Positions 32,504 through 47,883 of a stretch of 64,000 bases of DNA are shown one piece after another. This DNA comes from a virus. Made by a program: the position numbers and the translations under genes. The stretch covers positions 48,829 through 112,828 of the IMG/VR virus record IMGVR_UViG_3300025030_000051. One strand, given 5' to 3'. Position 1 is the first letter of the stretch; each line of letters starts with the position of its first letter. The notes beneath the pieces were generated by a model. It saw only the letters and a program-made list of their open reading frames with translations. It did no database searches and was not told the DNA's origin.

Positions 32504-32506
32504 AAA

Positions 32507-32689
32507 TTAAAACTCATTTTTATTAAAAATCATATTTAAAAAATTCTGCCATAACTGCCAATATCGCTTATATTTAATTGTATAAAAAAATCTTTTATAA
32601 TTTAAATACAATCTATACTTCCAATTATATTTTATTTTTTCTAATTCTTCTGGAGTTCTAACCCAGCCAGTAAAATCAACTTCATACAT
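32507..32689 (-). CDS. small hypothetical protein, 60 aa
   Basis: MYEVDFTGWVRTPEEL...; many Tyr/Trp and Lys. It may be basic and nucleic-acid binding but is not recognised. Confidence 0.5.
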   Translation of the reverse strand: MYEVDFTGWVRTPEELEKIKYNWKYRLYLNYKRFFYTIKYKRYWQLWQNFLNMIFNKNEF

Positions 32690-33251: not shown

Positions 33252-33600
33252 TATTTTGGTCTATTATTAATTTTTTAATTATACCACCATGACATTCATT
33301 TTCTGAACTGCAAAAACAAACCAAATTAACTCCATTTTCTCTCTCAGCCCAAACTTTAATTCTATTTAATTCATTCACAATATTAGTATATTTTATTAAA
33401 TTTTGTTTATTCTCTAAAATATCATATAACCATTCTTTGTATTTTGAAATAGCCTCTTCTCTTGTTTTTACTTGAATTAAGACTTTAGTCTTATTTAATT
33501 TTAAATGAGTGTATATATTTCCCAATACTGAACCTCTTCCAATATAAATATCATTTATTTGAGGTACATGTTTATGTTTATTTACTATATTTATTTTCAT
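33244..33600 (-). CDS. DUF4326 family protein, 118 aa
   Basis: IYIGRGSVLGNIYTHL, TREEAISKYKEWLYD and LVCFCSSENECHGGII match the DUF4326 signature (R-x-S-x-L-G-N-P, then Y-x-x-W-L, then C-x-C-x-x-x-x-C-H-G). The Cys/His cluster could bind metal. Biochemical role unknown; often in phage genomes. Confidence 0.85.
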   Translation of the reverse strand: MKINIVNKHKHVPQINDIYIGRGSVLGNIYTHLKLNKTKVLIQVKTREEAISKYKEWLYDILENKQNLIKYTNIVNELNRIKVWAERENGVNLVCFCSSENECHGGIIKKLIIDQNND

Positions 33601-33679
33601 TCAGTTATTCAAAAATAATCATTTATATATCTAGAAATTCATTATATGATGTCTGTTTAAATAATTAAATATTATATTA

Positions 33680-34702
33680 TTATTTAATAGGACACGCACC
33701 AGTTTCACATTCTAAGTCATCCTTTAATTCTGATAAATCAACAGTTTTTTTATAAAGTTTATTAAAATCAATTTTGCTAATTAATTCTTCATATTTTTCT
33801 TTTGTAATTTCTTCATAAGGTGCTTGTTTAAATCCGTGTTCACTGTGAAGTAAAAAAGAAACTGATTTTATTGAATTTTTATAATTTTCTTTTAACCACA
33901 GTTGTATATTAGTTAGTTCTTCTTTTTTATAATAAACAGTACAACTAACAGCATTATCAGACCAAATTGTCTGCATTTTTTTTAATAATTCTAACTGTTT
34001 AATGGCATCAAAATCTTTTGTTAAAATTGCATTTTTATTAGATTTCATTGGAAATTCTACAATAACAGTATTTCTATCTAAACTTCCATCTAATTGAGTC
34101 ACATATTCAGTATTAAGTCCAGCATCTTTACATAAATTTACCAAACTATCGTTTGACGACATTCTTATTCTTCTAATATAATACTCAGAATATGCTGAGT
34201 GTAATCCTGGTGTGGTATTAGGAAGAAGACTTAAAGTACCAGAAGGCTTCAAACATGTTAATCTTATTGATTCATTCCAATTATTTTCTTTTGAATATTT
34301 TTTATCAAATTCTTCTATATAATCTGATATTTCATTAAGCCAATTAAGTTGCTCTTCAGTAGATTCACATATTCCAGTTATACCTATTCCAAGACGATTA
34401 TTTTTATGAACTATTTTATTTGTTTCTTCATGTAAATAATTCATGTTTGCAACATTTTTAGAAAATTTATATAATAAAATAACTATTTCTTTTAATTCTT
34501 CTTTTAATTTAATTCGAGGGAGAAATATTTCTGTTAAATTGCAACATTCTTTATTGGCAAGAAAAATTTCAACACAATTATGCACAAGTATATTATTAGC
34601 AAAAAAATTATGATTATTTTCAACACTAATATCATAAACATCTTCATTGGAAATAATTTCTATTTTTTTTATTTTAGTTTTAACAATCGTTCTTTTTTCC
34701 AT
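33680..34702 (-). CDS. nrdJ: class II ribonucleotide reductase, C-terminal half with intein C-fragment
   Basis: 340 residues. The first 42 are an intein C-fragment: EDVYDISVENNHNFFANNILVHN is intein blocks F and G, with the terminal His-Asn, then Cys as +1. The extein continues CVEIFLANKECCNLTEI, the reductase segment that normally follows 'N-P'. Active-site features of adenosylcobalamin-dependent RTPR follow: SGTLSLLPNTTPG, SVSFLLH, and a redox tail ending ETGACPIK like the EGGACPIK of Lactobacillus RTPR. Needs trans-splicing with the half at 35149-36471 to make a reductase of about 638 residues. Confidence 0.92.
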   Translation of the reverse strand: MEKRTIVKTKIKKIEIISNEDVYDISVENNHNFFANNILVHNCVEIFLANKECCNLTEIFLPRIKLKEELKEIVILLYKFSKNVANMNYLHEETNKIVHKNNRLGIGITGICESTEEQLNWLNEISDYIEEFDKKYSKENNWNESIRLTCLKPSGTLSLLPNTTPGLHSAYSEYYIRRIRMSSNDSLVNLCKDAGLNTEYVTQLDGSLDRNTVIVEFPMKSNKNAILTKDFDAIKQLELLKKMQTIWSDNAVSCTVYYKKEELTNIQLWLKENYKNSIKSVSFLLHSEHGFKQAPYEEITKEKYEELISKIDFNKLYKKTVDLSELKDDLECETGACPIK

Positions 34703-34711
34703 TTTTTTAAT

Positions 34712-35086
34712 TCACTTCCATAAGTTGTATTTTCTTCTAAATAATTGTTTATATTTTCTATTAATATAACATTTATATTTTTTAATTTTTCTTTTAATAA
34801 AATTGTTTTCCAAATCATAATATTCTTTTAAAGATTTTTCAAAAATATTAAATTTAAACTTATTTTCTTCAATTAAACATTTAAGTATATAATCATTTTT
34901 ATATTTTAATCTCCTTTTACTTCCAAGTTTATTTTTATTAAAATATTTTATAAAATTTTCATTATTTTCTAAATCATCATATATTTTTGGCAATAAATTA
35001 TTTTTAATATTATTCATACCAATAACAGGTTTATAAAAAATATTATAGAGGGATATAATATTTTTTTGCAATTCTAATATATTCAA
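34712..35086 (-). CDS. unknown ORF inserted between the two reductase halves, 124 aa, TTG start
   Basis: TTG start at 35086 with a GGAG 6 nt upstream, preceded by TATAAATC, which resembles a T4 late promoter. The protein is very basic (KKYKCYINRKYKQLFRRKY at the end) and has no motif I recognise. Position matches that of the endonucleases that lie between split-intein halves in other fractured genes, so it may be a divergent or shortened nuclease. Confidence 0.55.
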   Translation of the reverse strand: MNILELQKNIISLYNIFYKPVIGMNNIKNNLLPKIYDDLENNENFIKYFNKNKLGSKRRLKYKNDYILKCLIEENKFKFNIFEKSLKEYYDLENNFIKRKIKKYKCYINRKYKQLFRRKYNLWK

Positions 35087-35148
35087 AGTATTCTCCAGAT
35101 TAAAAACTAATACGGATTTATACCTATAAAATATTAGAAATTAAATTT

Positions 35149-36471
35149 TTAATTATTTTTTATTTGTATAATAATATCATTTTCACTCAAATTATTAGCC
35201 GCTATCCAGCCTCTGTTTTCTGTATAAACTTTATGATTTGGTGTTAGTTTTAATTCTGTATTATCTTCTAATATTAATTTTATAATATTTACATCTTTTC
35301 TTGTCAACTCAATCTGTCTTATATTATTATATTCTAATTTTTTATTATTTTCATTAAAAGTTAATATTTTGGGTTTATTTTTACATTTAATTAATTTATT
35401 TATTTTAATGTCACCAATTTCAGTAGTTATAAAAGTATCACCGGTTACGCAAGGATTTGCCCCATCAATTGAATTATCACGCTTTTTTCTTCCAAGCTTA
35501 CCAACTGCTCTTGCTAATTTTAAATTTACTAAACCATAAGGTTCACCATTACCATTATAACTATTCCAAAACTCTGGCATTAATTCGTCGTAATCATCTG
35601 CTGCAATACTATTATTTGACATTGCTCTCCAAGATGGTACATTTTCCATATCCCATCTTTTAGCTCTAAGATATAAAATATCATCTGGATCACCTATGGC
35701 CAACTCAGCGCTTCTCCTGACATTTCCACTTACAACTATCTGTCCAATAATATTAAAAACATCTAACACATCAATACTTCTTAATCTTTTGCCTTCTCTA
35801 TTTTTCAATATCGAACAAATATTTTGAATTCCAATATGTAATTCTTCAGGACCTGAAGAAACTCCACCAAAACCTTTTATTAATGCTCCTTTGCTTCTAA
35901 TTAAATCCAATGAATATGAAAATGATTTTCCGTTATTCATAAAAGCTTCTAAAACTTTTTTTAATAATTCAACCCAGCCCTCTCTTTTATCTGGAACTAT
36001 AAAGTCTGCATCTTTAGTATCTTCTCTATATATATTAATATTTTCTTTTATTTTTGGCAATTGATAAACATCTTCTTTTCTTACAGAAACTCCAACACCA
36101 CCTCCAAGCATTAATTCTTCCATACCAAAACAAAAATCTTCTATAGTTGATAATTTTGTAAACCAACAGTTTAATAAACTATCTCCCATGAATTTATCTA
36201 CTATTTTAGTTCCAAGTTGCCATAAAGCTCTACCAGATAAGCAACATTTTAAATTAAATATATAATCATATAATTTTACTAATTCATCGTCTGAAATTTT
36301 AAAATTATATTTTTTAATTGCACTTACGCATCTTTGAATTGTTTCATGCCATTCTTCAGTTATATCTTCATTTTCTTTTAATCTTGCATAAGTTCTTTTA
36401 TAAACTATATAACCAAGAATAGATCCTGGCCAGTTTTTATTTTCATATTTTTTATATAGATTATCTATCAA
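35149..36471 (-). CDS. nrdJ: class II ribonucleotide reductase, N-terminal half with intein N-fragment
   Basis: 440 residues. Residues 1-340 match the RTPR family: GYIVYKRTYARL, LSGRALWQLGT, LLNCWFTKL (active-site Cys), LGGGVGVSV, and VSGNVRRSAELAIGD. At NSIDGANP the extein stops and an intein N-fragment of 100 residues begins: CVTGDTFITTEIGDIKI (block A) and LKLTPNHKVYTENRGW (block B), ending IIIQIKNN and TAA. Canonical split site between blocks B and F. Start is TTG at 36471, without a visible Shine-Dalgarno, after a hairpin-rich leader. The enzyme reduces ribonucleoside triphosphates using B12. Confidence 0.92.
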   Translation of the reverse strand: MIDNLYKKYENKNWPGSILGYIVYKRTYARLKENEDITEEWHETIQRCVSAIKKYNFKISDDELVKLYDYIFNLKCCLSGRALWQLGTKIVDKFMGDSLLNCWFTKLSTIEDFCFGMEELMLGGGVGVSVRKEDVYQLPKIKENINIYREDTKDADFIVPDKREGWVELLKKVLEAFMNNGKSFSYSLDLIRSKGALIKGFGGVSSGPEELHIGIQNICSILKNREGKRLRSIDVLDVFNIIGQIVVSGNVRRSAELAIGDPDDILYLRAKRWDMENVPSWRAMSNNSIAADDYDELMPEFWNSYNGNGEPYGLVNLKLARAVGKLGRKKRDNSIDGANPCVTGDTFITTEIGDIKINKLIKCKNKPKILTFNENNKKLEYNNIRQIELTRKDVNIIKLILEDNTELKLTPNHKVYTENRGWIAANNLSENDIIIQIKNN

Positions 36472-36481
36472 ATATTTTTTT

Positions 36482-36720
36482 CAATTAATAAATCAATAAG
36501 ATTGATTTTTGTGTGAGACACAAGTTTAAAATTTATTTTATTTTATTTCTTGATTTTTAAAATTAAGAAATTAGTTTAAACTAAATCAAAGCCAGTACAG
36601 ACAGTTTTTATAAACTGTTAAACAATATTAAATGTTAAAGGATAGAATTTCCCATTCAATACTTTTAATCAAGCCTTGATATATCTATTTATGTTCTCTT
36701 TTGAACTAACTAATACTTGA
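36482..36720 (-). promoter_or_regulatory. hairpin-dense leader upstream of the reductase gene
   Basis: About 240 bases without a gene. Perfect or near-perfect inverted repeats lie in close order: 36491-36507 (arms AATCAAT/ATTGATT), 36509-36523 (TTGTGT/ACACAA), 36547-36571 (TTTCTT.../...AAGAAA), 36571-36584 (TTAGTTTAAACTAA), 36601-36618 (ACAGTTT/AAACTGT, loop TTAT), 36668-36680 (ATCAAG/CTTGAT) and 36693-36706 (GTTC/GAAC). This is far denser than other gaps here. It lies in the 5' leader of a B12-dependent reductase. Could be an attenuator, riboswitch-like RNA, or remnant of a structured intron. I do not see the usual B12 box. Confidence 0.55.
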
Positions 36721-37167
36721 TTAAATATTTAGTGTAATATTAAAATTATTTAAAAATTGATATTCTCTATTTTTAATACTATATATATAATTATTTATTT
36801 CTTTAATTACTTTATTAATATTATTTTCTATTTCTTCATTAGTAAATCTTATTAAAAAATTTTTATAATATTGTTTTAGTTTTATTTCTCTTAAAGTATC
36901 TTTAATTTTTTGTTTATCATTTTCATGATATTTTCCATCAACTTCTATAAATAAATAATTTTTATATTTATCATTTTTTATAGGAATTGAAAAATCAGGT
37001 ATATAAAACTTATTTTTATAAGATCCTCTAGGGATAGCTCTTTGAAAGTAAAAAAATATATTTTCTTTTTCTAACTTACTTTTTAACAACATTTCAGCAT
37101 TTGTTGCATTTTTTTTTAATTTTTTAGAAAATTGTAAAGCTCTTTTTTTATTATTATTAAATTTCAT
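36721..37167 (-). CDS. DUF559 (Vsr-like) endonuclease, 148 aa
   Basis: KKLKKNATNAEMLLKSKL, then FYFQRAIPRGSYKNKFYIPDFSIP and YLFIEVDGKYHENDKQKIKDTLREIKLKQ, then LIRFTNEEI. This is the DUF559 layout: DF, E-x-D-G-x-H, D-x-x-R, and R-F-x-N-x-E. DUF559 belongs to the Vsr/PD-(D/E)XK-related nucleases. It sits between the reductase and helicase genes. Probably a free-standing homing nuclease. Confidence 0.8.
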   Translation of the reverse strand: MKFNNNKKRALQFSKKLKKNATNAEMLLKSKLEKENIFFYFQRAIPRGSYKNKFYIPDFSIPIKNDKYKNYLFIEVDGKYHENDKQKIKDTLREIKLKQYYKNFLIRFTNEEIENNINKVIKEINNYIYSIKNREYQFLNNFNITLNI

Positions 37168-37670
37168 TTAAATTTTTTATTTCTTTTAATTTGATTATTT
37201 AAGTGAAACTGTTCGTTTTCTAATTTATGTATTTTCCCTTTAGAAGGTCTACCAAATTTTTTTGATCTTTTTTTGGTTAATTTATATCTTTTAAAACTAT
37301 CATATCCTTTATAATTTTCTGTTTTTTCTTTTGAATCTATTAACAATCTTTTATAATTATTTAAACAATTATTTATCGTTTCTATAAAGTATTTTTGTTT
37401 ACTAAATATATCATTATTTGTAAATCTTAATATATTTTTTATTTTATTACTATATTCAATCATTAATGTTTCTTCTCTTAATTTATCTTTTTCTTTTTGT
37501 TCATTATGATATTCTCCATCTATTTCAATAACAGTCTTAATTTTAGGTATATAAAAATCTACTCTATATAGAATAAATATTTTTTGGAAAATAAATTTTA
37601 TTTTATTATCTTCTAATAATTTTTTTGCTATTAATTCAGCTTTAGTTGGATTTTTAATAGCCTCATTTTT
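37164..37670 (-). CDS. second DUF559 (Vsr-like) endonuclease, start unclear
   Basis: The first ATG is at 37463, but in the same frame upstream the sequence reads NPTKAELIAKKLLEDNKI, then FILYRVDFYIPKIKTVIEIDGEYHNEQ, the DUF559 active site, so the gene must start earlier. The frame is open from 37670 and has no ATG; an ATT lies at 37658. The C-terminal part (YDSFKRYKLTKKRSKKFGRPS) is basic. Either it uses a non-standard start or the 5' end has decayed. Confidence 0.6.
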   Translation of the reverse strand, partial: KNEAIKNPTKAELIAKKLLEDNKIKFIFQKIFILYRVDFYIPKIKTVIEIDGEYHNEQKEKDKLREETLMIEYSNKIKNILRFTNNDIFSKQKYFIETINNCLNNYKRLLIDSKEKTENYKGYDSFKRYKLTKKRSKKFGRPSKGKIHKLENEQFHLNNQIKRNKKFK

Positions 37671-37726
37671 CTATAAAATGATAATTTATTTATATTTTTC
37701 TTTTATTAATAAATATTATTTAAAAT

Positions 37727-38887
37727 TCAATTTTTATCTTTAAAATATTTTTCTTTTAATAATTTTTTTGTTAAGCTATTTCCATTCATTTTTTCATTCA
37801 GAATTTTACCTTGTAAACTATTACTTTCAAAAATTGATAACTTTCCGTTATTTACGTTAAACTGTGCTGGAAATCTAATTTTATCTACTCCGAATCTATT
37901 CTTAATAATAAAAATTCTTGCTGTTTTTGATTCACTGTCTATTTCTTTTCTTGATACTGAAAAAATAAAATCACCAATCATTATTTTAGAATAATCTTCA
38001 GATATTTGTTCTCCAACTATTACATCAGATTCAGCACCTGAACGATTAACTTGAGAAACTGTCCAAACTCCAGTATTAAAATCACCAGACATTCCTCTTA
38101 ATTCTTCATAAATATTTCCTATTTCTAATCTTTTATCTTTATAAAATCTTGGTGCCTTTAATAAATCACCATAATCAACTATAATTAAATCTGGTTTTAA
38201 TCCAAGTTGAATAGATCTTTCAATATGTGATGTTAAAGTATTTATTGTTGCTCTTTTTGGAGGATATTCTTTTACTAATAGTTTTCCTTTTTTTTCATTT
38301 AAATTATTTAGAGATTTTTCTATTTCAATTTCATTAAACTTTAATTCAGAAACATAAATATCTGTAAATCTAGAATAGTATCTTTTAGTTATCATTTCTT
38401 TACTTAATTCTAAAGTATAATGAAATACTATTTTTCCTTGTTTTAAAGCTTCAGTTCCTATATTGGCAAGTTGCCATGAATTATGAGATAGTATTTCATT
38501 ACTATAATAACAATTAACGTCATCTACTTCTAAATCAAATAATATTTGTTTTTTATGAATTATATATTGTTTTTTTAATGTAGTTATACCATTTTTAGTT
38601 TCAATAATATCATTATTATTTATATTTTTTACATATTTCCACTCATTATTTGCCATTATTCTATGTTTGGTTGATGTCTTTAGTGTTTTTCCATTACTAA
38701 AATAATTAATGACAACAAATTTATTTTTTATTGTGAATAATTTATTTATTTTTTTATATCCAAAGGGTGTTAAAACATTAATTTTAAATGGTAATATATA
38801 ATTTATTTCTTCATTGTAATTTAAATTACAATTTTTAAATAAATCTACAATCTTAACAGTTTCAGTTTTTTTTCTAAAATATATCAT
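37727..38887 (-). CDS. replicative helicase (gp41/DnaB), C-terminal half with intein C-fragment
   Basis: 386 residues. Residues 1-136 are an intein C-fragment carrying block B (LKTSTKHRIMANNEWKYV), block F/G (ILFDLEVDDVNCYYSNEILSHN) and Ser as +1. The extein resumes at SWQLANIGTEALKQGK, the half of the Walker A helix that normally follows 'GSPGMGK', and goes on with LIIVDYGDLL (Walker B) and WTVSQVNRSG (DnaB motif H3). ATG overlaps the nuclease stop (ATGA). Forms the ring helicase of the phage replisome after trans-splicing with 39896-40672. Confidence 0.9.
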   Translation of the reverse strand: MIYFRKKTETVKIVDLFKNCNLNYNEEINYILPFKINVLTPFGYKKINKLFTIKNKFVVINYFSNGKTLKTSTKHRIMANNEWKYVKNINNNDIIETKNGITTLKKQYIIHKKQILFDLEVDDVNCYYSNEILSHNSWQLANIGTEALKQGKIVFHYTLELSKEMITKRYYSRFTDIYVSELKFNEIEIEKSLNNLNEKKGKLLVKEYPPKRATINTLTSHIERSIQLGLKPDLIIVDYGDLLKAPRFYKDKRLEIGNIYEELRGMSGDFNTGVWTVSQVNRSGAESDVIVGEQISEDYSKIMIGDFIFSVSRKEIDSESKTARIFIIKNRFGVDKIRFPAQFNVNNGKLSIFESNSLQGKILNEKMNGNSLTKKLLKEKYFKDKN

Positions 38888-39849
38888 TTTAAAAATTTCT
38901 TTATTTTTTTTATTATTTCACTTTTATTGTTATACCAATCATCTTCCCAAACAATCATTATTTTATAATTATTATTTTCTAATTTTTTTATTCTTTTTTT
39001 ATCATGTTCCCATATATCTTTTATTTTTTGTTTTGTCATCTTGTGTTTTTCTTCTCCATTTAAAAAATATTTAGGATTACAATGCCAAAAATCTCCAAAA
39101 AATTCTATTATCTTATTTTTATAAAGTATATCTACAGAATAAGCTCTTTCTTTATAAATTTTTATATCAACATTTGCCTTTGCTTTTATATTGAAATTTT
39201 CACATATATAATTATATAATTCAGCTTCACCCTTGCTTCTTGATACAATAAAATGTTTTGCCCATTTAGTAGCTCCAATATCTAATATTGTTTTACTAAG
39301 TGTAGAACTTATTTTTAATTTTGATATATCTGAATGGTTGTGATTTAAAAATTTAGATGATTTTTTACTATTTTTTGATTGAAGTTCACAAATAATGTTT
39401 TTTGCTTCTTTTTCAGAATAACCCTTTTTAAGCCAGTGTAGTATACTAAGTATACTTTTTTCTTTTTGAATAATTTCAATTTGTTTATTTGCTTCTTTTT
39501 CAGAATAACCCTTTTTAAGCCAATATTCTATATACCAGTTGCTATTTTGTTTTTGTGTTAAACTAACCATATTAGTGGCTTCTTTTTCAGAATAACCCTT
39601 TTTAAGCCAATATTGTGGTTTTCTATTTGTAATAACTTTTGTTTTAAACCACTTTTTAAATTCAGGATCTTTATACTTATCTCTTATTTTTTGTTTTGTT
39701 TCTTCTGTTAATTTTACTATTATTAATTTTAATTCTTTACCGTATTTTTCTTTATATTCATTTCCCCTCATGTTGTGTTTAAATTTTAAATGTGGGACTA
39801 AATTTTTCATTTTTCTATTACATATTTTACAAATTAATAGTTTTTCTAT
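38884..39849 (-). CDS. Vsr-like homing endonuclease lodged between the helicase halves, ATA start
   Basis: The first ATG at 39810 is preceded in frame by EKLLICKICNRK, which completes a zinc finger (C-x2-C ... H-x4-H with HLKFKHNM). The only start before it is ATA at 39849, 7 nt behind a GGAG at 39857-39860. The product is 321 residues: zinc finger, three 29-residue repeats (WLKKGYSEKEA), then a C-terminal nuclease domain (YSVDILYKNKIIEFFGDFWHCNP, IWEHDKKRIKKLENNNYKIMIVWEDDW). That nuclease pattern is the Vsr-like family known from other split-intein genes. Confidence 0.8.
   Translation of the reverse strand: MEKLLICKICNRKMKNLVPHLKFKHNMRGNEYKEKYGKELKLIIVKLTEETKQKIRDKYKDPEFKKWFKTKVITNRKPQYWLKKGYSEKEATNMVSLTQKQNSNWYIEYWLKKGYSEKEANKQIEIIQKEKSILSILHWLKKGYSEKEAKNIICELQSKNSKKSSKFLNHNHSDISKLKISSTLSKTILDIGATKWAKHFIVSRSKGEAELYNYICENFNIKAKANVDIKIYKERAYSVDILYKNKIIEFFGDFWHCNPKYFLNGEEKHKMTKQKIKDIWEHDKKRIKKLENNNYKIMIVWEDDWYNNKSEIIKKIKKFLK
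39404..39610 (-). repeat. three direct repeats of 87 bp
   Basis: Inside the Vsr-like endonuclease, a 30-odd base core recurs at 39404, 39491 and 39578 nearly unchanged. Each unit encodes WLKKGYSEKEA plus 18 variable residues. Such modules in homing nucleases usually contact DNA. Identical spacing (29 codons) suggests recent tandem duplication. Confidence 0.85.
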
Positions 39850-39895
39850 TTGTTTTCTCCATTTTTTATTAAAAATATAAAGAAAACAAATTTTT

Positions 39896-40672
39896 TTAAT
39901 GTTTTTCCTGTACCGGGTGTTTCAATTCATAAGCAAACATTGTTTTTTCATCAATTTTTACTATTTCCCATGGTTTATACCATTTTATTTCATTATCAAT
40001 TTCTATTCCTATTTCATTATATTGTATATCTATTTTTGTGTTTTTACCAACACATTTTCCCATTCCGGGTGACCCAGCAATTATAAATAATTCACCGGTT
40101 TTCGAATCCCCAATACCACCTTCTGTTATTTCATTAATAATATCCCACGGAGTTGCTATAGTATTTCTTTTAGCTTTTTCAAGCATTTCATTTGGAGATT
40201 TTTCTAACAACATTAATCCTATATCTCTATCTTGACCTGCTCTTTCGGCCTCCCTAAATCTTATTTTAACAGCTTCATAATCTCCTTTTTTAATATCGTC
40301 AACAGAATTATAAACAGTTAATTTCCAGTTTTGATTAATACAAAATTCAATAAAGTTATCTTTAATATAAGATAAATCTTCAGCAGTTTTAAAGTCGTAC
40401 GATTCTCTTAATTTTTGTACAATGCTTTCTTTAAAGACATCATTCTTTTCACTTTCAATTTCTGCCTTGAATACTTCTAACGTAGGATTTAATTTGTATT
40501 TTTTGTAATATTCTTTGATTTTATTCACAATCCACTGACAAGCTTCAGAATCAAAAAATTCTGGTTTTAATATGTCTTCAGTTTTAATTAAAAATTTCAA
40601 ATCATATATAAGGCAGGTAACAACCTTAGATTGATAAACTTGTCCGAAGCGTGTTAAGTTATCTAATTGCAT
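39896..40672 (-). CDS. replicative helicase (gp41/DnaB), N-terminal half with intein N-fragment
   Basis: 258 residues. Residues 1-206 hold the helicase N-domain (EDILKPEFFDSEACQWIV) and linker, then ITEGGIGDSKTGELFIIAGSPGMGK, the first part of the Walker A motif. There the extein is cut and an intein N-fragment of 52 residues starts at CVGKNTKIDIQYNEIG (block A-like) and ends PVQEKH, TAA. The break lies in the ATP-binding loop, so this half cannot bind ATP alone. Combined extein length would be about 456 residues, near the 475 of T4 gp41. Confidence 0.9.
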   Translation of the reverse strand: MQLDNLTRFGQVYQSKVVTCLIYDLKFLIKTEDILKPEFFDSEACQWIVNKIKEYYKKYKLNPTLEVFKAEIESEKNDVFKESIVQKLRESYDFKTAEDLSYIKDNFIEFCINQNWKLTVYNSVDDIKKGDYEAVKIRFREAERAGQDRDIGLMLLEKSPNEMLEKAKRNTIATPWDIINEITEGGIGDSKTGELFIIAGSPGMGKCVGKNTKIDIQYNEIGIEIDNEIKWYKPWEIVKIDEKTMFAYELKHPVQEKH

Positions 40673-41115
40673 GATTTGACAAAAAGTTTTGACTTTTCAA
40701 GTAATGAGAATTTTCTTGAAGGCTGTTTTTTATCTACAATCTTACAACCAAATGGATATTGCGGAAAACAAATAGAATTAAATCTATTTTTTCCTTTAAA
40801 TCTTGGAAACCCTGGTATCTGATGTTGTTTGATTCTTCTAAAGAAATTTTTATAGGCATTATCAACAGTTTTAAGTACATATTGTAAATTTTGAGCAAAT
40901 ATTTCTTTATATTCAGGATAAAATTCTTTAAACTCTGTAAGTTCTTTAGATTGATCATAATAATTAATAGATTTACTGTTTATAGATGATTTATATGAAT
41001 TTATTCTTTGTTCAAGACAAACGTTATAGAGATTTCTACAAAGTTCAAATTGATTGTTTAAAGTTTTTTGAATTGTTTTATTTGGGTAGATTCTATATTT
41101 GAAAGATTTTCTCAT
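40663..41115 (-). pseudogene. IS200/IS605-family TnpB fragment, N-terminal 150 aa
   Basis: KSFKYRIYPNKTIQKTL, FELCRNLYNVCLEQRI, LKTVDNAYKNFFRRIKQ and PGFPRFKGKNRFNSICFPQ are the N-terminal helix-turn-helix domain of TnpB (OrfB). Full TnpB is about 400 residues with an RuvC nuclease; here the frame ends in TAG at 40663, within the start of the helicase gene. No TnpA, no C-terminal RuvC and no flanking hairpins are seen. So it is a remnant, possibly still expressed. Confidence 0.8.
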
Positions 41116-41164
41116 TGCTTAATTATAAAATTTTGAATTTTAATAAACTTTCTATTCGAAAAAT

Positions 41165-42223
41165 TTAACTCTCTTTTGCAAATTTATTTAAAATAGAAAA
41201 ATTTGTTGTAATCCATTCATTAATATTCTTAAAAGAATTCCAAATTTTATCGTGTTTGATCAGTTCATAAATATGTATAAGATTTATTTCTGTAATTTTT
41301 TTATTAAATAGTTCAGTAATCTTTAATACGGAAGACTTAGGAATATTGTCATTAGAAAGCTTCATAAGCTTATAATTCAAAATATATTGGTTTATATTGT
41401 CTGATAGTAATCTGAATGCTCTGGCGTCATCTGTGTGATCGTGGGAGTAATCTAGAACGTTATCTACGGTGTATTGTTTGTCTTCATTTAAGAAACTAAA
41501 ATGCTTGTTTATATTCTTAATTCCTAATCCCTTTATTCCCGGTACATTATCACTTTTGTCACCAACCATAGATTTATATAAGGCAAAGTTATTTGGACTA
41601 ACGTTAAATCTTGTTAATACATTTTCTTTTGTGACAACTTCTTTTTTAATAGGATTCCAAACTTTTACTCTATCATCAATTAGCTGATAAAAATCTTTAT
41701 CTGAAGAGATGATAAATAATTCCTGTAGTTCTTTTTTATTTTTACATATATCTATTAAACAGCTTATTGAATCATCAGCTTCAATGCTATCTATACATAT
41801 AAAAGTTATAGGAAGATTTTTTAAATATTGAACAATACGCAATAATTGATATTGCATTTGTTTTCTTTCTTCTTCTTCATTTTCCCACTTATAAGCTCTG
41901 TTTAATCTTGTACCAGATCCACGGTTTTCTTTATAATCAGGAAATATTTTTTTTCTTCTTTTAGAAGAGTCTTTACCATCTAAAACAATAAAAATACGAG
42001 TGGGTCGTAATGCTCTAATAGAAACCCCCAAAGTATGAAGAAAACCGACTATTCCACCAACATGGCGTCCATCTTCATTTGTTGTAGGCATTACAACCCA
42101 AATTCGTATGAAATTATTTAAACAGTCAACAATTAAAATTCTAGAATTTAAAGTTAAATCTTTTTCTTCTTTATGTTCTTTTTCTATTATTTTAAGAAGT
42201 TCTTCAAATTTTTCATTCATCAA
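41165..42223 (-). CDS. 5'-3' exonuclease / flap endonuclease (T4 RNase H-like)
   Basis: 352 residues. LIVDCLNNFIR (first metal Asp), IFIVLDGKDSSKRRKKIFPDYKENR (DGK and Lys/Arg helical arch), IEADDSISCLI (E-x-D-D), SSDKDFYQLI (S-x-D-x-D) and VGDKSDNVPGIKGLGIK (G-D-x-x-D-N and H3TH). This is the FEN/PIN-type nuclease that removes Okazaki primers. The split recombinase gene lies directly upstream with ATGA coupling. Confidence 0.93.
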   Translation of the reverse strand: MMNEKFEELLKIIEKEHKEEKDLTLNSRILIVDCLNNFIRIWVVMPTTNEDGRHVGGIVGFLHTLGVSIRALRPTRIFIVLDGKDSSKRRKKIFPDYKENRGSGTRLNRAYKWENEEEERKQMQYQLLRIVQYLKNLPITFICIDSIEADDSISCLIDICKNKKELQELFIISSDKDFYQLIDDRVKVWNPIKKEVVTKENVLTRFNVSPNNFALYKSMVGDKSDNVPGIKGLGIKNINKHFSFLNEDKQYTVDNVLDYSHDHTDDARAFRLLSDNINQYILNYKLMKLSNDNIPKSSVLKITELFNKKITEINLIHIYELIKHDKIWNSFKNINEWITTNFSILNKFAKES

Positions 42224-43527
42224 TCTTCTACTGTTTCGTCAATTTCTATTTTAGATTTATCTATATTTTCAGAATTTCTGTCTACGTATTTCATAATGAT
42301 TTTATCTGCAAGATTATCATACAACAGCTGTTTCTTTTGTGGATTATTAATTATTAATTCTTCGAAATTTGGGTTTTGAAATCTTGTCATTTCTAAATCG
42401 TTTTCTATCATATACCACCCTTTTACTTCTTTAAATTTATTATCTTTATTTTCTGACTTAGTTTCATCTTCTAATTTTTTGGCTTTAATAATAGAACCAT
42501 ATTTTTTTCCTGTTTCAAACCAAGTTGTAGAATTATCTAACCCTCTATCAAAATAAACATCATAATCACAAGATCTAAAAGATGGACCTAATTTACTTTT
42601 TATAACTTTACAGTTACCTCTAATACCAATTATATCAGTGCCACTTTTTAGTTTGCTTATATTTTTTAATCTCAATCTTAATGATGCATGAAATTGTATT
42701 GCCTTTCCGCCTGATGTTGTATACGGATCTCCAAATGTTACTCCAATATTTGATCTTAATTGATTTGTAAAAATTAAAGCTATTTTATGATTAGCTATTA
42801 CTTTACCAATTTTCCTCATAGCTTGTGATAATATTGTTGCCTTTTGAGTAGCAAACCCTTGTTTATCATATGTTCCCTCATCTTCAACTTTATTTGTTGC
42901 ACCCATAATAGAGTCAAGAGCAATGGTAACTAATCTATCACTGTTTGCTTTTCTAACACTCTCAATAATGTTTTCTATAGTCTGGAATGCGTCTTCTATA
43001 ACTGGTATTGGAGCATAAATCATTTTACCTAAATCTAATCCTATTGCTTTCATAAATTCTCTATCAGCAGAATGTTCAGTATCTATTAATACAGGAACTC
43101 CATTCTTTTTTTGAGTTTCTAATAATATATGATGAACTAATAAAGACTTGGCTGTGTTATGATTCAACATTCCATTTCCAAAATAACATTGATCATCATA
43201 ATTTTTTTCATCTATTACTATATCTACAATTTTATATTTTCCAATATAATTTACTGCTTTTACTAAATGATAATTATCGTCATCACATAATATTTTAGTT
43301 TCATTTGGTATCAATTCGAGTGTTTTTACCCACCCAGAATTAGTAAAAAATTGATGTTTTTTTGCTACATTTTGTTTATAGTTATTTTTTAATATAACTT
43401 GCCAAGTATCTAATAATCCTTTTTCAATGTATTTTTTTATATATACGTATTCTCCATTTTTTGATTTAACTTTTATTTTTTTATTTTCTTCAAGTAATTT
43501 TTTTATTTCTTTAATTTCTACTTGCAT
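42220..43527 (-). CDS. UvsX/RecA recombinase, C-terminal half with large intein C-fragment
   Basis: 435 residues. Residues 1-124 are an intein fragment: VAKKHQFFTNSGWVKTLELIP (block B), YKIVDIVIDEKNYDDQCYFGNGMLNHN (F/G with His-Asn), and Thr as +1. The extein resumes TAKSLLVHHILL, the end of the Walker A loop, followed by LIDTEHSADREFM, VTIALDSIMGA (Walker B), and LIFTNQLRSNIGVTFGDPYTTSGGKAIQFHASLRLRL, the RecA L2/ATP-coupling region. ATG overlaps the upstream nuclease stop by 10 bases. Must be ligated to 44789-45061 to work. Confidence 0.9.
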   Translation of the reverse strand: MQVEIKEIKKLLEENKKIKVKSKNGEYVYIKKYIEKGLLDTWQVILKNNYKQNVAKKHQFFTNSGWVKTLELIPNETKILCDDDNYHLVKAVNYIGKYKIVDIVIDEKNYDDQCYFGNGMLNHNTAKSLLVHHILLETQKKNGVPVLIDTEHSADREFMKAIGLDLGKMIYAPIPVIEDAFQTIENIIESVRKANSDRLVTIALDSIMGATNKVEDEGTYDKQGFATQKATILSQAMRKIGKVIANHKIALIFTNQLRSNIGVTFGDPYTTSGGKAIQFHASLRLRLKNISKLKSGTDIIGIRGNCKVIKSKLGPSFRSCDYDVYFDRGLDNSTTWFETGKKYGSIIKAKKLEDETKSENKDNKFKEVKGWYMIENDLEMTRFQNPNFEELIINNPQKKQLLYDNLADKIIMKYVDRNSENIDKSKIEIDETVED

Positions 43528-44732
43528 AATTTTAATAATCTTTCTTTCTGTTTTGAATTTAATATAATTAAATTATTTTTTATTAAATTTAGAATTTTAT
43601 TTTTATTTAAAATATTTTTTATATCATAAGTTTCTTCTGTTATATAATTACATTTTAAATTAAATTTGTTACAATATTCTTTTAATGCATAAAATTTAAG
43701 TTTATTTAAAGATAAATTGATTAATACTTTGGGTTTGATTTCATATATATTGTTTTCTATAATAATGTCTGGATTATATGTTTTTTTTGTGTTTTTATAT
43801 TTAAAGCTTATTCTATGTTTAGATAATGAAAAATTTATATTATTTTCTATTAGATAAATAAAAATTGATAATTCTAAAGAACTTCTAAATAAAATTTTTT
43901 TACCATTATTAATTAAATGACCAAATATTCCTCTACCTGATAAATATGATGGAGATCTTCCATACATTGAAGTTCTTTTTGTTTTTCCATATAATTTTTT
44001 AAGATGTATATAGTTATGAAATTGATTTATATTTTTTAATTTTAATTTAATGTCTTTAGCAAAATCATTATTCTTTAATCCATCTATATATATCCCTTTA
44101 GCATCATTACTTAATTCTGGTAAAGCATTTTTTCTATCTAAAGCATTTTGATGTAATCTTTGTGCATTTTTTTTAAATTGATTTTTAGCTTTTATAGCAT
44201 TTAATATTTTACCATTATTTTTTGCATTTTCAAAAAAATTATAAAATTTTAAATAATTAGTTATAGGAATTGGACCAATTTTTGTTATTTTGCATATATC
44301 AGTTATAGACTTTCCGTTTTTTATTTCTTCTCTAATCAGTTCTCCAAAATTTTTATTAATATTGTTGAATCTTTTTATTCTTTTTAATTTTTGATATTTT
44401 TTTAATTTTATAGATTTATTTCTTTTGTTTGTACCATTTAATTTGTTCTCTAATTTAAGTTTTGTTTCATCTTTGGATATTTTAAATCTTTTTTTTAGTG
44501 TTTTTTCATATATATTATAAAAATTATATTCTTTGACTGTTTGTAAAATTATTCTTTCATTTTTTATATTAAAAATTTTTGCTATTTCAAATCTATTTTT
44601 TCCTTCTATCAGTAAGTTTTTAATTTTATTCCAATTATCAAATTTAAATTTACAAATATGATAATGCGAATTATAATTATTTTTACTAATTATTTTATTA
44701 CACAATTCACATTTTATATAATTTACTATCAA
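43518..44732 (-). CDS. endonuclease-like ORF lodged between the UvsX halves, 404 aa, TTG start
   Basis: TTG at 44732 with a GGAG 7 nt upstream. N-terminal zinc finger (KCELCNKIISKNNYNSHYHIC), several HTH-like segments (NRFEIAKIFNI, SITDICKITKI), and a C-terminal domain FRSSLELSIFIYLIENNI, then KTYNPDIIIENNIYEIKPK, an R-S-x-x-E ... Y-x-P-D-(x)6-E-I-K pattern typical of PD-(D/E)XK nucleases (TnsA- and MutH-like). Likely a homing nuclease specific for the uninterrupted recombinase gene. Ends in TAG. Confidence 0.75.
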   Translation of the reverse strand: MIVNYIKCELCNKIISKNNYNSHYHICKFKFDNWNKIKNLLIEGKNRFEIAKIFNIKNERIILQTVKEYNFYNIYEKTLKKRFKISKDETKLKLENKLNGTNKRNKSIKLKKYQKLKRIKRFNNINKNFGELIREEIKNGKSITDICKITKIGPIPITNYLKFYNFFENAKNNGKILNAIKAKNQFKKNAQRLHQNALDRKNALPELSNDAKGIYIDGLKNNDFAKDIKLKLKNINQFHNYIHLKKLYGKTKRTSMYGRSPSYLSGRGIFGHLINNGKKILFRSSLELSIFIYLIENNINFSLSKHRISFKYKNTKKTYNPDIIIENNIYEIKPKVLINLSLNKLKFYALKEYCNKFNLKCNYITEETYDIKNILNKNKILNLIKNNLIILNSKQKERLLKLCK

Positions 44733-44788
44733 AAAATTTCTCCATATACTTATTTTTATTATTATATAAATATATGGATTTTGAAATT

Positions 44789-45061
44789 TTATTCAATTAT
44801 TATATCAATAATTGTATCTTCAGAAACACAACTTTCTAGTCCGTTTATTTCTGTAATTCTTCCAACAGGAATTCCACCGTTTCTTCTATTTGATATTACC
44901 ATATCCATGATTGGGTCTCCAATCGAGACCCAATCTGTAATGTCTGATGGATTCCATTCTGGATTATCAAGAAAATATGCACTAAAAGGACTTTCAGAAG
45001 AATTTATAACATTATATACTGAAGAAATTAATTCATCATGAATTTCACTTTTTTTCTTCAT
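44789..45061 (-). CDS. UvsX/RecA recombinase, N-terminal half with a 13-residue intein N-fragment
   Basis: 90 residues. The first 77 match the UvsX N-terminus (DWVSIGDPIMDMVISNRRNGGIPVGRITEINGLES), the last residues being the start of the Walker A loop. Then CVSEDTIIDIIIE and TAA: a Cys-led block A with 'DT', the first beta-strand of an intein and nothing more. In the partner protein the intein continues from there. The join would give GLES-TAKS, an intact P-loop, and an extein of about 388 residues, as T4 UvsX (391). Confidence 0.9.
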   Translation of the reverse strand: MKKKSEIHDELISSVYNVINSSESPFSAYFLDNPEWNPSDITDWVSIGDPIMDMVISNRRNGGIPVGRITEINGLESCVSEDTIIDIIIE

Positions 45062-45063
45062 TT

Positions 45064-45840
45064 TTATTTCTTAGGAAATAATTTATCAAAAGCTGCAGAT
45101 GCTTTATCGACATCTTCATTTTTTACTTCTTCTTCATCATTACTATTATTTGAAATTTCTTTTTCTTCCTTACTATTTTTGTTCTTTAACCAATTTTCTA
45201 GAATATCTTTCAGTTCGTCATATTCCAATTCTTTATAGATATCATTGATATTTTTTTGTTCATCAAGATATTTTTTAATTAATTCTTCAGAGTCTGAAAG
45301 TGGACTGGTATTTCTTTTTGTTCTAATTGAAGTTTTACCAAAATTGTTTCCTGCCTCTTCTGGAGTTTGATAAGTTATTACTAAATCAGTTCCATTATTT
45401 ATATCAGAAATATCACCGTAATCTGGATCTGACATAATTTTTAGAATTTCTTCATAAGTAGTTTTACCAAATTGCCAAAATCTTATTCCCTCATCTTCCT
45501 CACTTCTTACTAAAACTGGAACAAATATTCTCATTTTGGCTCTTAATGTTCTGCTTAGTGCATAATCATTTTTATCTCCAGTTGCAGCTAGTTTATCAGC
45601 AAACTTTTCAAAGGGGTCTGGATTTCCAAAGGACTTTGGGGAAATATAATTTTTATTGTCTATACCATAGTGGAAAAATAATTCTATAAAAGGATACTCG
45701 GCGTGTTTATATGGAACTATTCTTACTGTGTGTTCTCCTGTAGGCTTCCACATCCCAGAAGTTCTCTGAGATGAATCTTGTAACCCTTTGAGTGTTTTTC
45801 GAACTTTATCTAAAAGTTCTTTGTGAGATCTTGTCTTCAT
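45064..45840 (-). CDS. single-stranded DNA-binding protein, T4 gp32-like
   Basis: 258 residues. Basic N-terminus (MKTRSHKELLDKVRKTL), OB-fold region with WKPTGEHTVRIVPYKH, FHYGID and IRFWQFGKTTYEEILKIMSDPDYGDI (the gp32 core), and a strongly acidic C-terminal tail (NSNDEEEVKNEDVDKASAAFDKLFPKK). It coats ssDNA and recruits replication proteins through the tail. It directly precedes the split recombinase in the operon, a typical neighbour. Confidence 0.93.
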   Translation of the reverse strand: MKTRSHKELLDKVRKTLKGLQDSSQRTSGMWKPTGEHTVRIVPYKHAEYPFIELFFHYGIDNKNYISPKSFGNPDPFEKFADKLAATGDKNDYALSRTLRAKMRIFVPVLVRSEEDEGIRFWQFGKTTYEEILKIMSDPDYGDISDINNGTDLVITYQTPEEAGNNFGKTSIRTKRNTSPLSDSEELIKKYLDEQKNINDIYKELEYDELKDILENWLKNKNSKEEKEISNNSNDEEEVKNEDVDKASAAFDKLFPKK

Positions 45841-45944
45841 TTTTTATTACTCCCATTATTTAATGTTTAATAATTTATTAGTTATCAGTTAATATTTTAA
45901 TGCATAACCAAATAACCAATTTTTAATAAATATAAAAAAAAATT

Positions 45945-46346
45945 CTACAATTCAACTATTTTAAGTAATTTAGTATTAATTTTTTTGAATTCATTGTTGT
46001 CTATAACTAATATTGAATTTGAATAATTATTCCAGTCAACTAAAAATTTTTTATCTAATATTCCATCGTTAAGTAGAGTAATAAGATGATTCAAAGCATT
46101 TATAGTATAGAGAGTATTGGAAATCTTTTTCCTGTGAACTGAAATTGTATTTATAGGAATAGTTTCAACTTTGATTTCTTTTGAGCTGTCTATATTATAG
46201 CTACAGATTAGTTTATTATTCTCATTAACACTCTGTAAAATAAATATTTTATCAAATAGAATTGTATAAGAACTTTTAATAGATTCAACTATTTTATCTA
46301 AATTCTTACTGTCTGTAAATGTTATTAGTAATTGAGAAGTAAACAT
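45945..46346 (-). CDS. hypothetical protein, 133 aa
   Basis: MFTSQLLITFTDSKNLDKIVE...; central VHRKKISNTLYTINALNHLI. It seems to be a conserved phage protein with two alpha/beta halves. It ends in TAG. Location among replication genes suggests a role in DNA metabolism, nothing more. Confidence 0.6.
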   Translation of the reverse strand: MFTSQLLITFTDSKNLDKIVESIKSSYTILFDKIFILQSVNENNKLICSYNIDSSKEIKVETIPINTISVHRKKISNTLYTINALNHLITLLNDGILDKKFLVDWNNYSNSILVIDNNEFKKINTKLLKIVEL

Positions 46347-46360
46347 TTAGTTTTATAATG

Positions 46361-46522
46361 TCAACATTTATTAATAATTTTTACGCGATATTTCTTATTA
46401 TCATATTCAAATTCTTCTATACCTCTATTATTCTTAGCAGAAGCAATTGCTTTACTAAGAATTTTGGCTCCGCTGTAAGAATTAACTAATTTTTTAGCTA
46501 CACCTTTTATAGGAGCTGCCAT
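46361..46522 (-). CDS. small basic protein, 53 aa
   Basis: MAAPIKGVAKKLVNSYSGAKI...; good ribosome site (AGGA) and a TATATTTAT box upstream. Lys-rich with a basic C-terminal beta-hairpin (KKYRVKIINKC). Possibly DNA-binding. Confidence 0.6.
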   Translation of the reverse strand: MAAPIKGVAKKLVNSYSGAKILSKAIASAKNNRGIEEFEYDNKKYRVKIINKC

Positions 46523-46560
46523 ACAATTTCCTTTTTATCATTTTATAATAAATATATAAA

Positions 46561-47883
46561 TTATACAATTTTTATTAAGTTTTCATAATCTTTTCCATAT
46601 AATATAGAAACAGGAAATTTATGATCTTGTTCAATTATGTCCTTGATTTTTAAAATAAAATCTTTTCCATCATTTAAATTAAAGTCAATAAGTACTGAAT
46701 CATAAATATATAATACAGTTTTTGATTCATAGTTTTCCATAAATTCGTATAATTTATCGAGCATTATCATATTGTTCTCAGTTTCATATGCCTGTAAGTA
46801 ATAATTAAAGAGTTTATTTGGAGTAATATTTTTAATGTTACTAATTTTCTTTTTGAATAATCTAGTTTCTGTGTAACTATTTTCTTTATAAAATCTATAT
46901 AGTTCGGTGATAAATTTTTGTGTCTTATAAAAAAATGGAATACTTAAAAATTCTTCCGGAATATTACCATAAATAATTTCAAATAAAAGTTGTTTAGATT
47001 GTTTATATTCTTCTTCTGTTAAATCATCTTTATTGAAAAATATTTTGCCTAAAACTTTATAAGGATGTTCTTTAAATTTTTCACCAATAATATCAGCAAT
47101 TAAATAGAAATGATATGCGTTATAATCTATTAACAATAAATAACCACTGTCGCTAAATCGACTTATAAAATGCTTTCTTGTTCCGTCATTTTTATTCATT
47201 GCTACAAAGTTAAATCCGTTATATGTACATGATGGTCTTTCTGTAGACGTATAGGGATTGTATTTGTAAAAAATTAACTCATCAGCATTATCAGTCTTTA
47301 TTCCATTTCTTTCAATTCTATAGAGATTATTTAATAATAAAGAATTCATTTTATTGTAAGTATCTGATTCTAATATATTTTTGTTTTCTAATAATTTTAA
47401 TATTTTATCTTTAATGTTATGCAAATATTCTATATGTTTTTGTAATGGAATGATTAAATTATTCTCACTGTTATTATAAAATTTTCTATAAATAAACTTG
47501 TGAGCTTGTGTATATTCATAAAAATTATTTTTTAATTTGTTGCTAATAATATAATCTAATAATTCCATATCTTTCCAAGTTTCATCTAATTCTTCTTTAA
47601 AATTATGCTGAATATTTCTCTTGTCTATTATAAATTTTTTATTTTTAGACAATTTAATTAATGACAATAATTTATTTACTTCTTCATTTGATATATTTAA
47701 ACAATCTGGATGGTTGATTGGAACAACAAATTCTTCATTTTTTGTTGATATGTAAATAATAGAAATATTGTTTAGAATAGGATGGACTTTGTCATTATAA
47801 AAAATAGGAATTAAGATAAAATCATTAATTTCTGTTTCTTTTATTAATTTTAGATATGATTCTTTAGATTCTGTTATTAACAA
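46561..47883 (-). CDS. divergent family A DNA polymerase-like protein, 440 aa
   Basis: TTG start behind AAGG. The C-terminal 250 residues keep the order of a PolA palm: ERPSCTYNGFNFVAMNKNDGTRKHF, LLLIDYNAYHFYLIADII (motif A with Asp but His in place of the usual Glu), NKLFNYYLQAYETENNMIML (end of motif B/O-helix region) and VLYIYDSVLIDF (motif C with Tyr-Asp-Ser instead of His-Asp-Glu). The two metal-binding Asp residues survive. Perhaps a structural or specialised polymerase; the replicase is the family C enzyme at 19493-22783. Confidence 0.65.
   Translation of the reverse strand: MLITESKESYLKLIKETEINDFILIPIFYNDKVHPILNNISIIYISTKNEEFVVPINHPDCLNISNEEVNKLLSLIKLSKNKKFIIDKRNIQHNFKEELDETWKDMELLDYIISNKLKNNFYEYTQAHKFIYRKFYNNSENNLIIPLQKHIEYLHNIKDKILKLLENKNILESDTYNKMNSLLLNNLYRIERNGIKTDNADELIFYKYNPYTSTERPSCTYNGFNFVAMNKNDGTRKHFISRFSDSGYLLLIDYNAYHFYLIADIIGEKFKEHPYKVLGKIFFNKDDLTEEEYKQSKQLLFEIIYGNIPEEFLSIPFFYKTQKFITELYRFYKENSYTETRLFKKKISNIKNITPNKLFNYYLQAYETENNMIMLDKLYEFMENYESKTVLYIYDSVLIDFNLNDGKDFILKIKDIIEQDHKFPVSILYGKDYENLIKIV

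What the first reader, a model, noticed from the sequence alone, without database searches (positions are those of the whole stretch)
42220..45061. Recombinase gene broken by an intein with a 13-residue N-fragment
The UvsX/RecA N-half (44789-45061) ends in CVSEDTIIDIIIE and a stop. The C-half (42220-43527) starts with 124 residues of intein and goes on at the Walker A Thr-Ala-Lys-Ser. Canonical split inteins carry about 90-105 residues on the N side; atypically split ones such as AceL-TerL carry about 25. Thirteen residues would be among the shortest natural N-fragments. The break lies in the ATP-binding loop (GLES/TAKS), so recombination would depend on trans-splicing.
Basis: partly seen in the sequence, partly recalled or inferred. 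Interest (0 to 1): 0.88.

Follow-up and report, generated by a model that had tools for sequence, protein, structure and literature searches.

The report
Split recombinase with 13-residue intein fragment
A virus of microbes carries its DNA-recombination gene in two pieces that should be stitched together, after translation, by a protein-splicing element whose front piece has only 13 residues, shorter than any natural one described in the papers searched, and two other virus lineages carry the same arrangement.

Summary
The UvsX/RecA gene is in two ORFs: 77 residues of UvsX plus a 13-residue intein start (GLES|CVSEDTIIDIIIE, stop), and a 124-residue intein remainder (...NHN) plus UvsX from TAKS on. 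It does not look like an assembly accident or decay: two further lineages in IMG/VR (L096/L100/L101; L106) have different sequences but the same insertion point and again exactly 13 residues. The inteins are 51-54% identical although the L106 UvsX is only 39% identical to the other two, and a UvsX tree rejects one clade, so the already split intein seems to move between phages. The closest solved structure by profile and Foldseek is VidaL (6vgv), an atypically split intein whose front piece is reported as 16 residues; the shortest characterised natural one in the papers seen is 15. So this is a new branch of a known kind, with the shortest natural N-fragment I could find. Splicing itself is inferred, not shown. 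No uninterrupted UvsX was found in the 112,828-base record, which may be incomplete.

The parts
44831..45061 (-). UvsX N-extein, 77 aa, ending in the first half of the Walker A loop (GLES)
   Evidence: phrog_97 4.6e-8; ends where uninterrupted relative L011 reads GLES|SGKS
44792..44830 (-). IntN, 13 aa: CVSEDTIIDIIIE (Cys1, block A)
   Evidence: same length in L096/L100/L101 and L106
44789..44791 (-). stop codon TAA of the N-half
44741..44778 (-). hairpin (13-bp stem) in the 56-nt leader; its 3' arm holds most of the GGAG that lies 7 nt before the TTG start of the endonuclease-like ORF
   Evidence: fold of 44715-44800, -15.7 kcal/mol, z -3.10, 0 of 200 shuffles as good; a 14-mer with the 5' arm recurs in the L106 spacer (3 of 2000 shuffles)
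43518..44732 (-). 404-aa ORF (TTG start), endonuclease-like: HTH-like N part, PD-(D/E)XK-like C part (E287, D322, E331, K333); inferred homing endonuclease
   Evidence: Phage_endo_I 6.5e-4 and HTH_7 9.2e-5, both under Pfam cut-off; L100 homologue TnsA-like 1.2e-5 and Phage_endo_I 3.9e-4, both under cut-off; motif spacing
43156..43527 (-). IntC, 124 aa (block B His, block F, block G ..MLNHN); its ATG overlaps the end of the endonuclease-like ORF by 10 nt
42223..43155 (-). UvsX C-extein, 311 aa from TAKSLL (rest of Walker A) on
   Evidence: PF00154 3.4e-41, 68% identical to L011

Best explanation
The phage's UvsX recombinase is made as two proteins and joined by protein trans-splicing. The intein is a 137-residue mini-intein (13+124) cut near the 'S1' position, before the first helix of the fold. 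The 13-residue IntN would dock as the missing N-terminal strand into a nearly complete IntC; Cys1 starts the N-S acyl shift, Thr+1 takes over the N-extein, Asn124 cyclises, and GLES is joined to TAKS, which rebuilds the ATP-binding loop. The ORF between the halves is most likely the homing endonuclease that spread the cassette between uvsX genes. Shown here: the anatomy, intein homology and fold of the IntC, conserved catalytic residues, dN/dS below 1, three lineages with the same 13-residue form. Inferred: association, splicing, homing.
For: Anatomy. IntC profile to VidaL 6vgv 5.9e-11; IntC alone aligns to 7cfv (137 aa) at 22-124 against 35-137, E 0.0039, an offset of 13. Fold. Block B His, penultimate His and last Asn in 6 of 6 IntCs compared. 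Three lineages with 13-aa IntN: CVSEDTIIDIIIE, CVTEDTLIDIIVE, CVTEDTKIEVIIE (46, 48, 58). Cultured phages: PA5oct-like phages carry a split UvsX at the same loop, with a 17-aa IntN in Paride, and Salicola phage SCTP-2 carries a whole 143-aa homologous intein there. dN/dS window against L096/L100 (NG86; dS above 1 in 3 of 5 parts, so rough): UvsX-N 0.28, IntN 0.36 (13 codons), IntC 0.21, UvsX-C 0.24, nuclease 0.49. Charges: IntN -4 and IntC +4 in both lineages. No Rfam match to a group I or II intron.
Against: No splicing was observed. The block B Thr (TxxH) is Ala here (Ser in L096 and L106). The joined Walker A would read GLESTAKS, with Ala where 78 of 80 kept relatives (the other two are this phage) have Gly; L096 and L106 keep SGKS and TGKS. 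The window's IntC alone found no match in 50,697 phage records at E<=1, and its Pfam intein match is below cut-off; TIGR01443 and TIGR01445, the intein-end models, find the reductase intein but not this one in the record. The last 16 residues of the IntC model have pLDDT under 50. The endonuclease call rests on sub-threshold Pfam matches and motif spacing; its own model failed (pLDDT 48).
Confidence: 0.88

Rival explanations
1. A whole intein gene is interrupted by a self-splicing RNA intron that carries the endonuclease-like ORF, so the intein is made in one piece.
For: An endonuclease-like ORF sits at the break, as in many phage group I introns (from general knowledge).
Against: Rfam finds no intron in 32000-47000 at E<=1 (only isrD at 0.92). 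Only 56 nt before and none after the ORF are free for an intron core. L106 has the same break with 97 nt and no endonuclease ORF.
Confidence: 0.04
2. The gene is decaying: the intein is dead and the phage uses another recombinase.
For: Walker A Gly to Ala and block B Thr to Ala in the window lineage; the 112,828-base record may be incomplete.
Against: Both halves are open in 7 contigs of 3 lineages; dN/dS 0.21-0.36 for the UvsX and intein parts; no second UvsX found in G000, in the five records G001-G005 or in G006. Another UvsX in hand (L109 2131-3165) has Phe at the Ala place.
Confidence: 0.06
3. The two halves work as a non-covalent pair, without splicing.
For: Split enzymes that reassociate exist (general knowledge).
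Against: The break is inside the P-loop and each half carries a conserved intein piece with Cys1, His and Asn in place; without splicing the loop would stay open (inference).
Confidence: 0.02

Closest known systems
VidaL split intein (PDB 6vgv/6vgw)
   Same: Atypical split near the N end, cysteine-dependent; best PDB match by profile (5.9e-11) and by Foldseek (3.3e-5). PMC13014065 (passages) places its split right after strand beta-2 (S1). I recall, from no call, that the published name is VidaL UvsX-2.
   Different: IntN reported as 16 aa (PMC13014065) against 13; VidaL is far nearer to the PA5oct-like UvsX intein (1.7e-35) than to this one, so this is a separate branch. By VIA-align Z other inteins stand above it (gp41-1 10.7, VidaL 7.3).
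PolB16 OarG split intein (PMC10189870, abstract and passages)
   Same: Atypical split with a very short IntN (15 aa, 'the shortest characterized so far').
   Different: Ser at 1 and +1, in a putative PolB-type polymerase gene, IntC 168 aa.
UvsX of PA5oct-like Pseudomonas phages (11 records with an identical IntC, PA5oct counted twice)
   Same: UvsX split inside the same loop (GESG|SGKS in Paride), an ORF between the halves.
   Different: IntN 17 aa (CLPETAKVKIRLSKKQS, Paride); IntC 21-28% identical to the three 13-aa lineages; the ORF between is related to the Vsr-like one in the window's helicase break.
AceL-TerL / GOS-TerL / Cat inteins
   Same: Short IntN, long IntC.
   Different: IntN 25-37 aa and a later split point, S2 (PMC13014065, PMC11766414, passages); it is the window's helicase intein, not the UvsX one, whose best PDB match is CatC (0.0073).
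Fractured genes of Dassa et al. 2009 (recalled; paper not held)
   Same: Gene halves with split-intein pieces and a free-standing endonuclease gene between.
   Different: As recalled, the splits there are canonical and the endonuclease is of another family.

Membership tests
VidaL-type (S1) atypically split class 1 inteins | Two polypeptides, split within about the first 16-17 intein residues | tested here: met
   13 and 124 aa; offset 13 to 7cfv; IntC residue 1 on residue 12-18 of most whole inteins aligned from there (exceptions by their own numbering: VidaL 22, 1zde 23, hedgehog 271)
VidaL-type (S1) atypically split class 1 inteins | Cys/Ser at 1, His-Asn at the end, Cys/Ser/Thr at +1 | tested here: met
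   Cys1, HN, Thr+1; L096 Ser+1, L106 Thr+1
VidaL-type (S1) atypically split class 1 inteins | Block B TxxH | tested here: inconclusive
   His in 6 of 6; Thr replaced by Ala here, Ser in L096 and L106
VidaL-type (S1) atypically split class 1 inteins | HINT fold | tested here: met
   for the IntC alone; the complex could not be modelled
VidaL-type (S1) atypically split class 1 inteins | Trans-splicing activity | not testable with these tools
   bench work needed
Fractured gene with free-standing endonuclease | Endonuclease-like ORF between the two gene halves | tested here: met
   window 404 aa; L096 138 aa and L100 150 aa, nuclease part only; absent in L106
Fractured gene with free-standing endonuclease | Vsr-like endonuclease (family named from recall) | tested here: inconclusive
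   UvsX-break ORF gives weak Phage_endo_I / TnsA-like matches and no Vsr match; the helicase-break ORF in the same window does match Vsr (2.5e-4, below NCBIfam's cut-off)
UvsX/RecA recombinase | RecA core and place in the replication gene cluster | tested here: met
   PF00154 3.4e-41; gp32-like gene before, 5'-3' exonuclease after; the same order of ORFs in L011
UvsX/RecA recombinase | Walker A GxxxxGK[ST] after joining | tested here: inconclusive
   GLES+TAKS has Ala for Gly; Phe stands there in another UvsX

The most novel reading that the evidence does not exclude
A sub-family of natural S1-split inteins with a 13-residue IntN, the shortest in nature so far, has spread as an already split element among unrelated phage uvsX genes and outlived its own endonuclease: full-length in the window, cut down to the nuclease part in L096/L100/L101, gone in L106. 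Splitting would then be a one-way step that makes recombinase activity depend on two proteins meeting.
Probability: 0.65. Interest if true: 0.68.

Novelty: new variant of a known kind. Interest (0 to 1): 0.6.

Why it matters
Short IntN pieces are wanted as near-invisible tags for semisynthesis and labelling of proteins; nature's shortest characterised one is 15 residues and slow (PMC13014065, passages). Three natural 13-residue pieces with matching IntCs give a ready test set. The series of whole, truncated and lost endonuclease with the split kept makes the question 'why do split inteins persist' directly testable. The host gene is apt: in T4, homing itself depends on the recombinase UvsX or RecA (PMC2988022, passages). 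Related inteins opened here also break the ATP-binding loop of a gp41-type helicase (L109) and of what looks by eye like a PhoH gene (L114).

Tried and rejected
Self-splicing intron: no Rfam match. Second uvsX: none found in G000, G001-G005 or G006, but none of these records is rated at least 90% complete. IntC relatives in cultured phages: none with the window's own IntC at E<=1; L106's IntC found 71 records at E<=1, L109's 270. Genome contigs with the four-IntC alignment: 65 stretches, none confirmed. Cyrano's RecA intein breaks the loop after GK, another point. Microcystis phage Mel-JY01 UvsX is uninterrupted. Of the 10 loci from the two EINGLES+Cys patterns, 2 are this phage, 3 the second lineage, 1 (L098) has Cys but reads on as GLESCGKS without intein, and 4 (L097, L099, L102, L103) are chance matches. 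Endonuclease remnant in the L106 spacer: 5 of 2000 shuffles reach the score against the end of the L100 nuclease, but 685 of 2000 against the window's, so only suggestive. The endonuclease model was too poor to search with (pLDDT 48). Promoter and terminator scan: 41 promoter-like sites against 31.2 (sd 4.4) by chance, no terminator; not used. For the tree I chose 16 of the 78 uninterrupted relatives plus L098; L013, L045 and L050 gave no usable C-part and dropped out, leaving 14 beside the window, L096, L106, Paride, SCTP-2 (part only) and Mel-JY01. The group table counts one change for the three carriers because intein-free rows were given no label; the AU test is the one used. YN00 failed, only NG86 is reported. 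Literature searches: (UvsX, 'split intein', 'atypical split') found 0 papers. One search (UvsX, intein, split) found 4; passages of all four were looked at and none of these passages reports an intein in UvsX. The MIJ3 paper (PMC6892783, passages) reports a split PolB intein; its main text holds no word beginning with UvsX or RecA. Passages only were also seen of PMC7090010, PMC11766414, PMC12707363 and PMC7765530.
Full report
WHAT IS THERE. On the minus strand the order is: gp32-like SSB gene (45064-45840, PF08804 2.3e-14); UvsX-N with a 13-residue intein start (44789-45061); a 404-aa ORF (43518-44732); IntC with the rest of UvsX (42220-43527); a 5'-3' exonuclease gene (41165-42223). The UvsX halves meet between residues 4 and 5 of the Walker A loop, GLES|TAKS. 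L011, a contig of another phage with the same order of these genes, has an uninterrupted 414-aa UvsX reading GLESSGKS there; it is the empty site. Of the 80 N-half relatives kept out of 573, 78 are uninterrupted (66 GLESSGKS, 1 GLESTGKS, 11 GLQASGKS) and 2 are near copies of this phage.

IT IS AN INTEIN. The IntC alone matches the Spl DnaX mini-intein (7cfv, 137 aa) from residue 22 to 124 against 35 to 137, E 0.0039: the offset of 13 is the IntN length, and 13+124 = 137. A profile of four IntCs gives VidaL 5.9e-11, Spl DnaX 2e-10, gp41-1 5.1e-8. The AlphaFold model from four sequences has mean pLDDT 76 (last 16 residues under 50); VidaL is the first Foldseek match (3.3e-5, TM 0.47) and all 26 matches at E<=0.001 are inteins. 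VIA-align Z is 10.7 for gp41-1 (6qaz, 65 residues, rmsd 1.6) and 7.3 for VidaL (104 residues, rmsd 5.6). Most rows that align from model residue 1 start at residue 12-18 of whole inteins (6riy 12, 6riz 13, Ssp DnaB 14, Mtu RecA 15); VidaL starts at 22, 1zde at 23 and the hedgehog domain at 271 in their own numbering. So what the IntC lacks is about the stretch that the 13 residues supply. The block B His, the penultimate His and the last Asn are kept in 6 of 6 IntCs; the block B Thr is not. Two intein-end models of NCBIfam do not ring here, while they find the reductase intein in the same record, so this intein is a divergent one.

THE 13-RESIDUE FORM IS A LINEAGE TRAIT. DNA patterns for EINGLES+Cys (two serine versions) and for CVxEDTxIDI in IMG/VR found, beside the two near copies, three contigs of a second lineage (L096, L100, L101), whose UvsX-N ends GLES|CVTEDTLIDIIVE; L096 differs from each of the other two by one base over the shared stretch. 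The last pattern found these 5 contigs and no others. A scan with the IntC alignment found a third lineage, L106: GLEG|CVTEDTKIEVIIE. IntCs are 124, 124 and 125 aa. In PA5oct-like phages the same loop is split, with a 17-aa IntN in Paride (IntC identical in 11 records), and Salicola phage SCTP-2 has the homologous intein whole, 143 aa, at the same point. Paride's IntC matches VidaL at 1.7e-35, so VidaL belongs with that branch and the window with a sister branch. One contig of the first lineage (L002) and one of the second (L096) bear the same IMG/VR sample number, 3300025015, so the two kinds of phage seem to share a habitat.

SPREAD. IntC identities are 51, 54 and 51% for window-L096, window-L106 and L096-L106; UvsX-C identities are 56, 39 and 39%. 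In a tree of 20 UvsX-C parts the window is nearest by path to L011 (no supported branch joins them), L096 groups with L012/L014/L015 (94/92) and L106 with Mel-JY01 (98/94). Holding the three carriers together costs 127.8 log-likelihood units, AU p 5.8e-40. L106 is a long branch, so its exact place is unsure. Either the split intein moved between phages or it was lost many times; that the intein is more alike than its L106 host gene favours movement.

THE ORF BETWEEN. Its C part holds E287, D322, E331, K333 with spacings of 35 and 9, close to the pattern I recall for T7 endonuclease I; Pfam Phage_endo_I 6.5e-4 and HTH_7 9.2e-5 are below cut-off. The L100 version is only the nuclease part (150 aa; 138 in L096), 56-57% identical over it, with a TnsA-like match of 1.2e-5, just under cut-off. 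L106 has 97 nt there, which share a 14-mer with the window's leader (3 of 2000 shuffles) and perhaps a scrap of the nuclease end (5 of 2000 against L100, 685 of 2000 against the window). That 14-mer holds the 5' arm of a hairpin whose 3' arm covers most of the GGAG of the window's ORF (z -3.10), which would hold back its translation, as I recall for some T4 homing endonucleases. In Paride the ORF between the halves is of another kind, related to the Vsr-like ORF in the window's helicase break (7e-11). So the nuclease changes while the host loop stays. In T4, homing needs the recombinase UvsX or RecA (PMC2988022, passages), so this element sits in the gene for an enzyme that its own spread would use.

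HOW IT MOST LIKELY WORKS. See best explanation. Association through the added strand is inferred from the fold; IntN has charge -4 and IntC +4 in both lineages tested. Selection: dN/dS is below 1 in every part (0.21-0.49), with dS above 1 in three of five, so the values are rough. That artificially split inteins work with an 11-residue IntN (M86, PMC13014065; a table row with 11 aa in PMC11766414) makes 13 plausible. In PA5oct the C-half product is annotated 'structural protein, ESI-MS/MS', so at least that relative's protein is made.

KNOWN OR NEW. Naturally split inteins with IntN of 15-37 aa are known (PMC13014065, passages); 15 aa is the shortest characterised (PMC10189870, abstract and passages). 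A 13-aa natural IntN, or an intein in UvsX, was not found in the searches named and the passages opened, which cover open-licence PMC papers only; the primary VidaL paper is not held, and I recall, without a call, that its intein is from a UvsX gene. Verdict: a new variant of a known kind, well supported as a split intein, with activity still to be shown.

Noticed in passing
33680-36471 (-): Class II ribonucleotide reductase gene also split by an intein, canonically: IntN 100 aa, IntC 42 aa, with a 124-aa ORF without PHROG match (34712-35086) between.
   Followed up: partly
37727-40672 (-): gp41-type helicase split in its Walker A (GMGK|SWQL) by an intein with 52-aa IntN and 136-aa IntC whose best PDB match is CatC (0.0073), an in-between split point, with a Vsr-like ORF (38884-39810) between. 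Three fractured genes within 11.4 kb.
   Followed up: partly
L109 3472-6185: gp41-type helicase split with an 18-aa IntN (AG|CVHPDTQIRVRITSPRVS) and an IntC 37-39% identical to the three 13-aa-lineage ones; an ORF that by eye looks HNH-like lies on the other strand between the halves.
   Followed up: partly
L114 593-3855 (LR756500.1): A gene that by eye looks like PhoH, split in its P-loop (TGKAG|TGK) with a 26-aa IntN, an ORF without Pfam match between, and a related IntC.
   Followed up: partly
L096 9033-12001: The second phage also has its helicase split, at another place, with a long canonical-looking IntN, a short IntC and an endonuclease-like ORF between (by eye).
   Followed up: no
43144-43155 (-): Walker A of the window's UvsX has Ala for the Gly before Lys; L096 and L106 keep Gly.
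   Followed up: partly
40663-41115 (-): TnpB/IS605 OrfB-type ORF of only 150 aa (HTH_OrfB_IS605 2.5e-11), wedged between helicase and exonuclease genes.
   Followed up: no
36721-37167 (-): DUF559 ORF (PF04480 2e-11) beside the split reductase gene.
   Followed up: no
L112 2237-4207: Salicola phage SCTP-2 gp204 UvsX seems to hold a second, separate intein further on (GG|CLVADTD...SHN|SGQ) (by eye).
   Followed up: no
L096 6124-6198, L106 4886-4982: In the second and third lineages the nuclease ORF (or its possible remnant) is in the same frame as the IntN, right behind its stop codon; in the window it is not.
   Followed up: no
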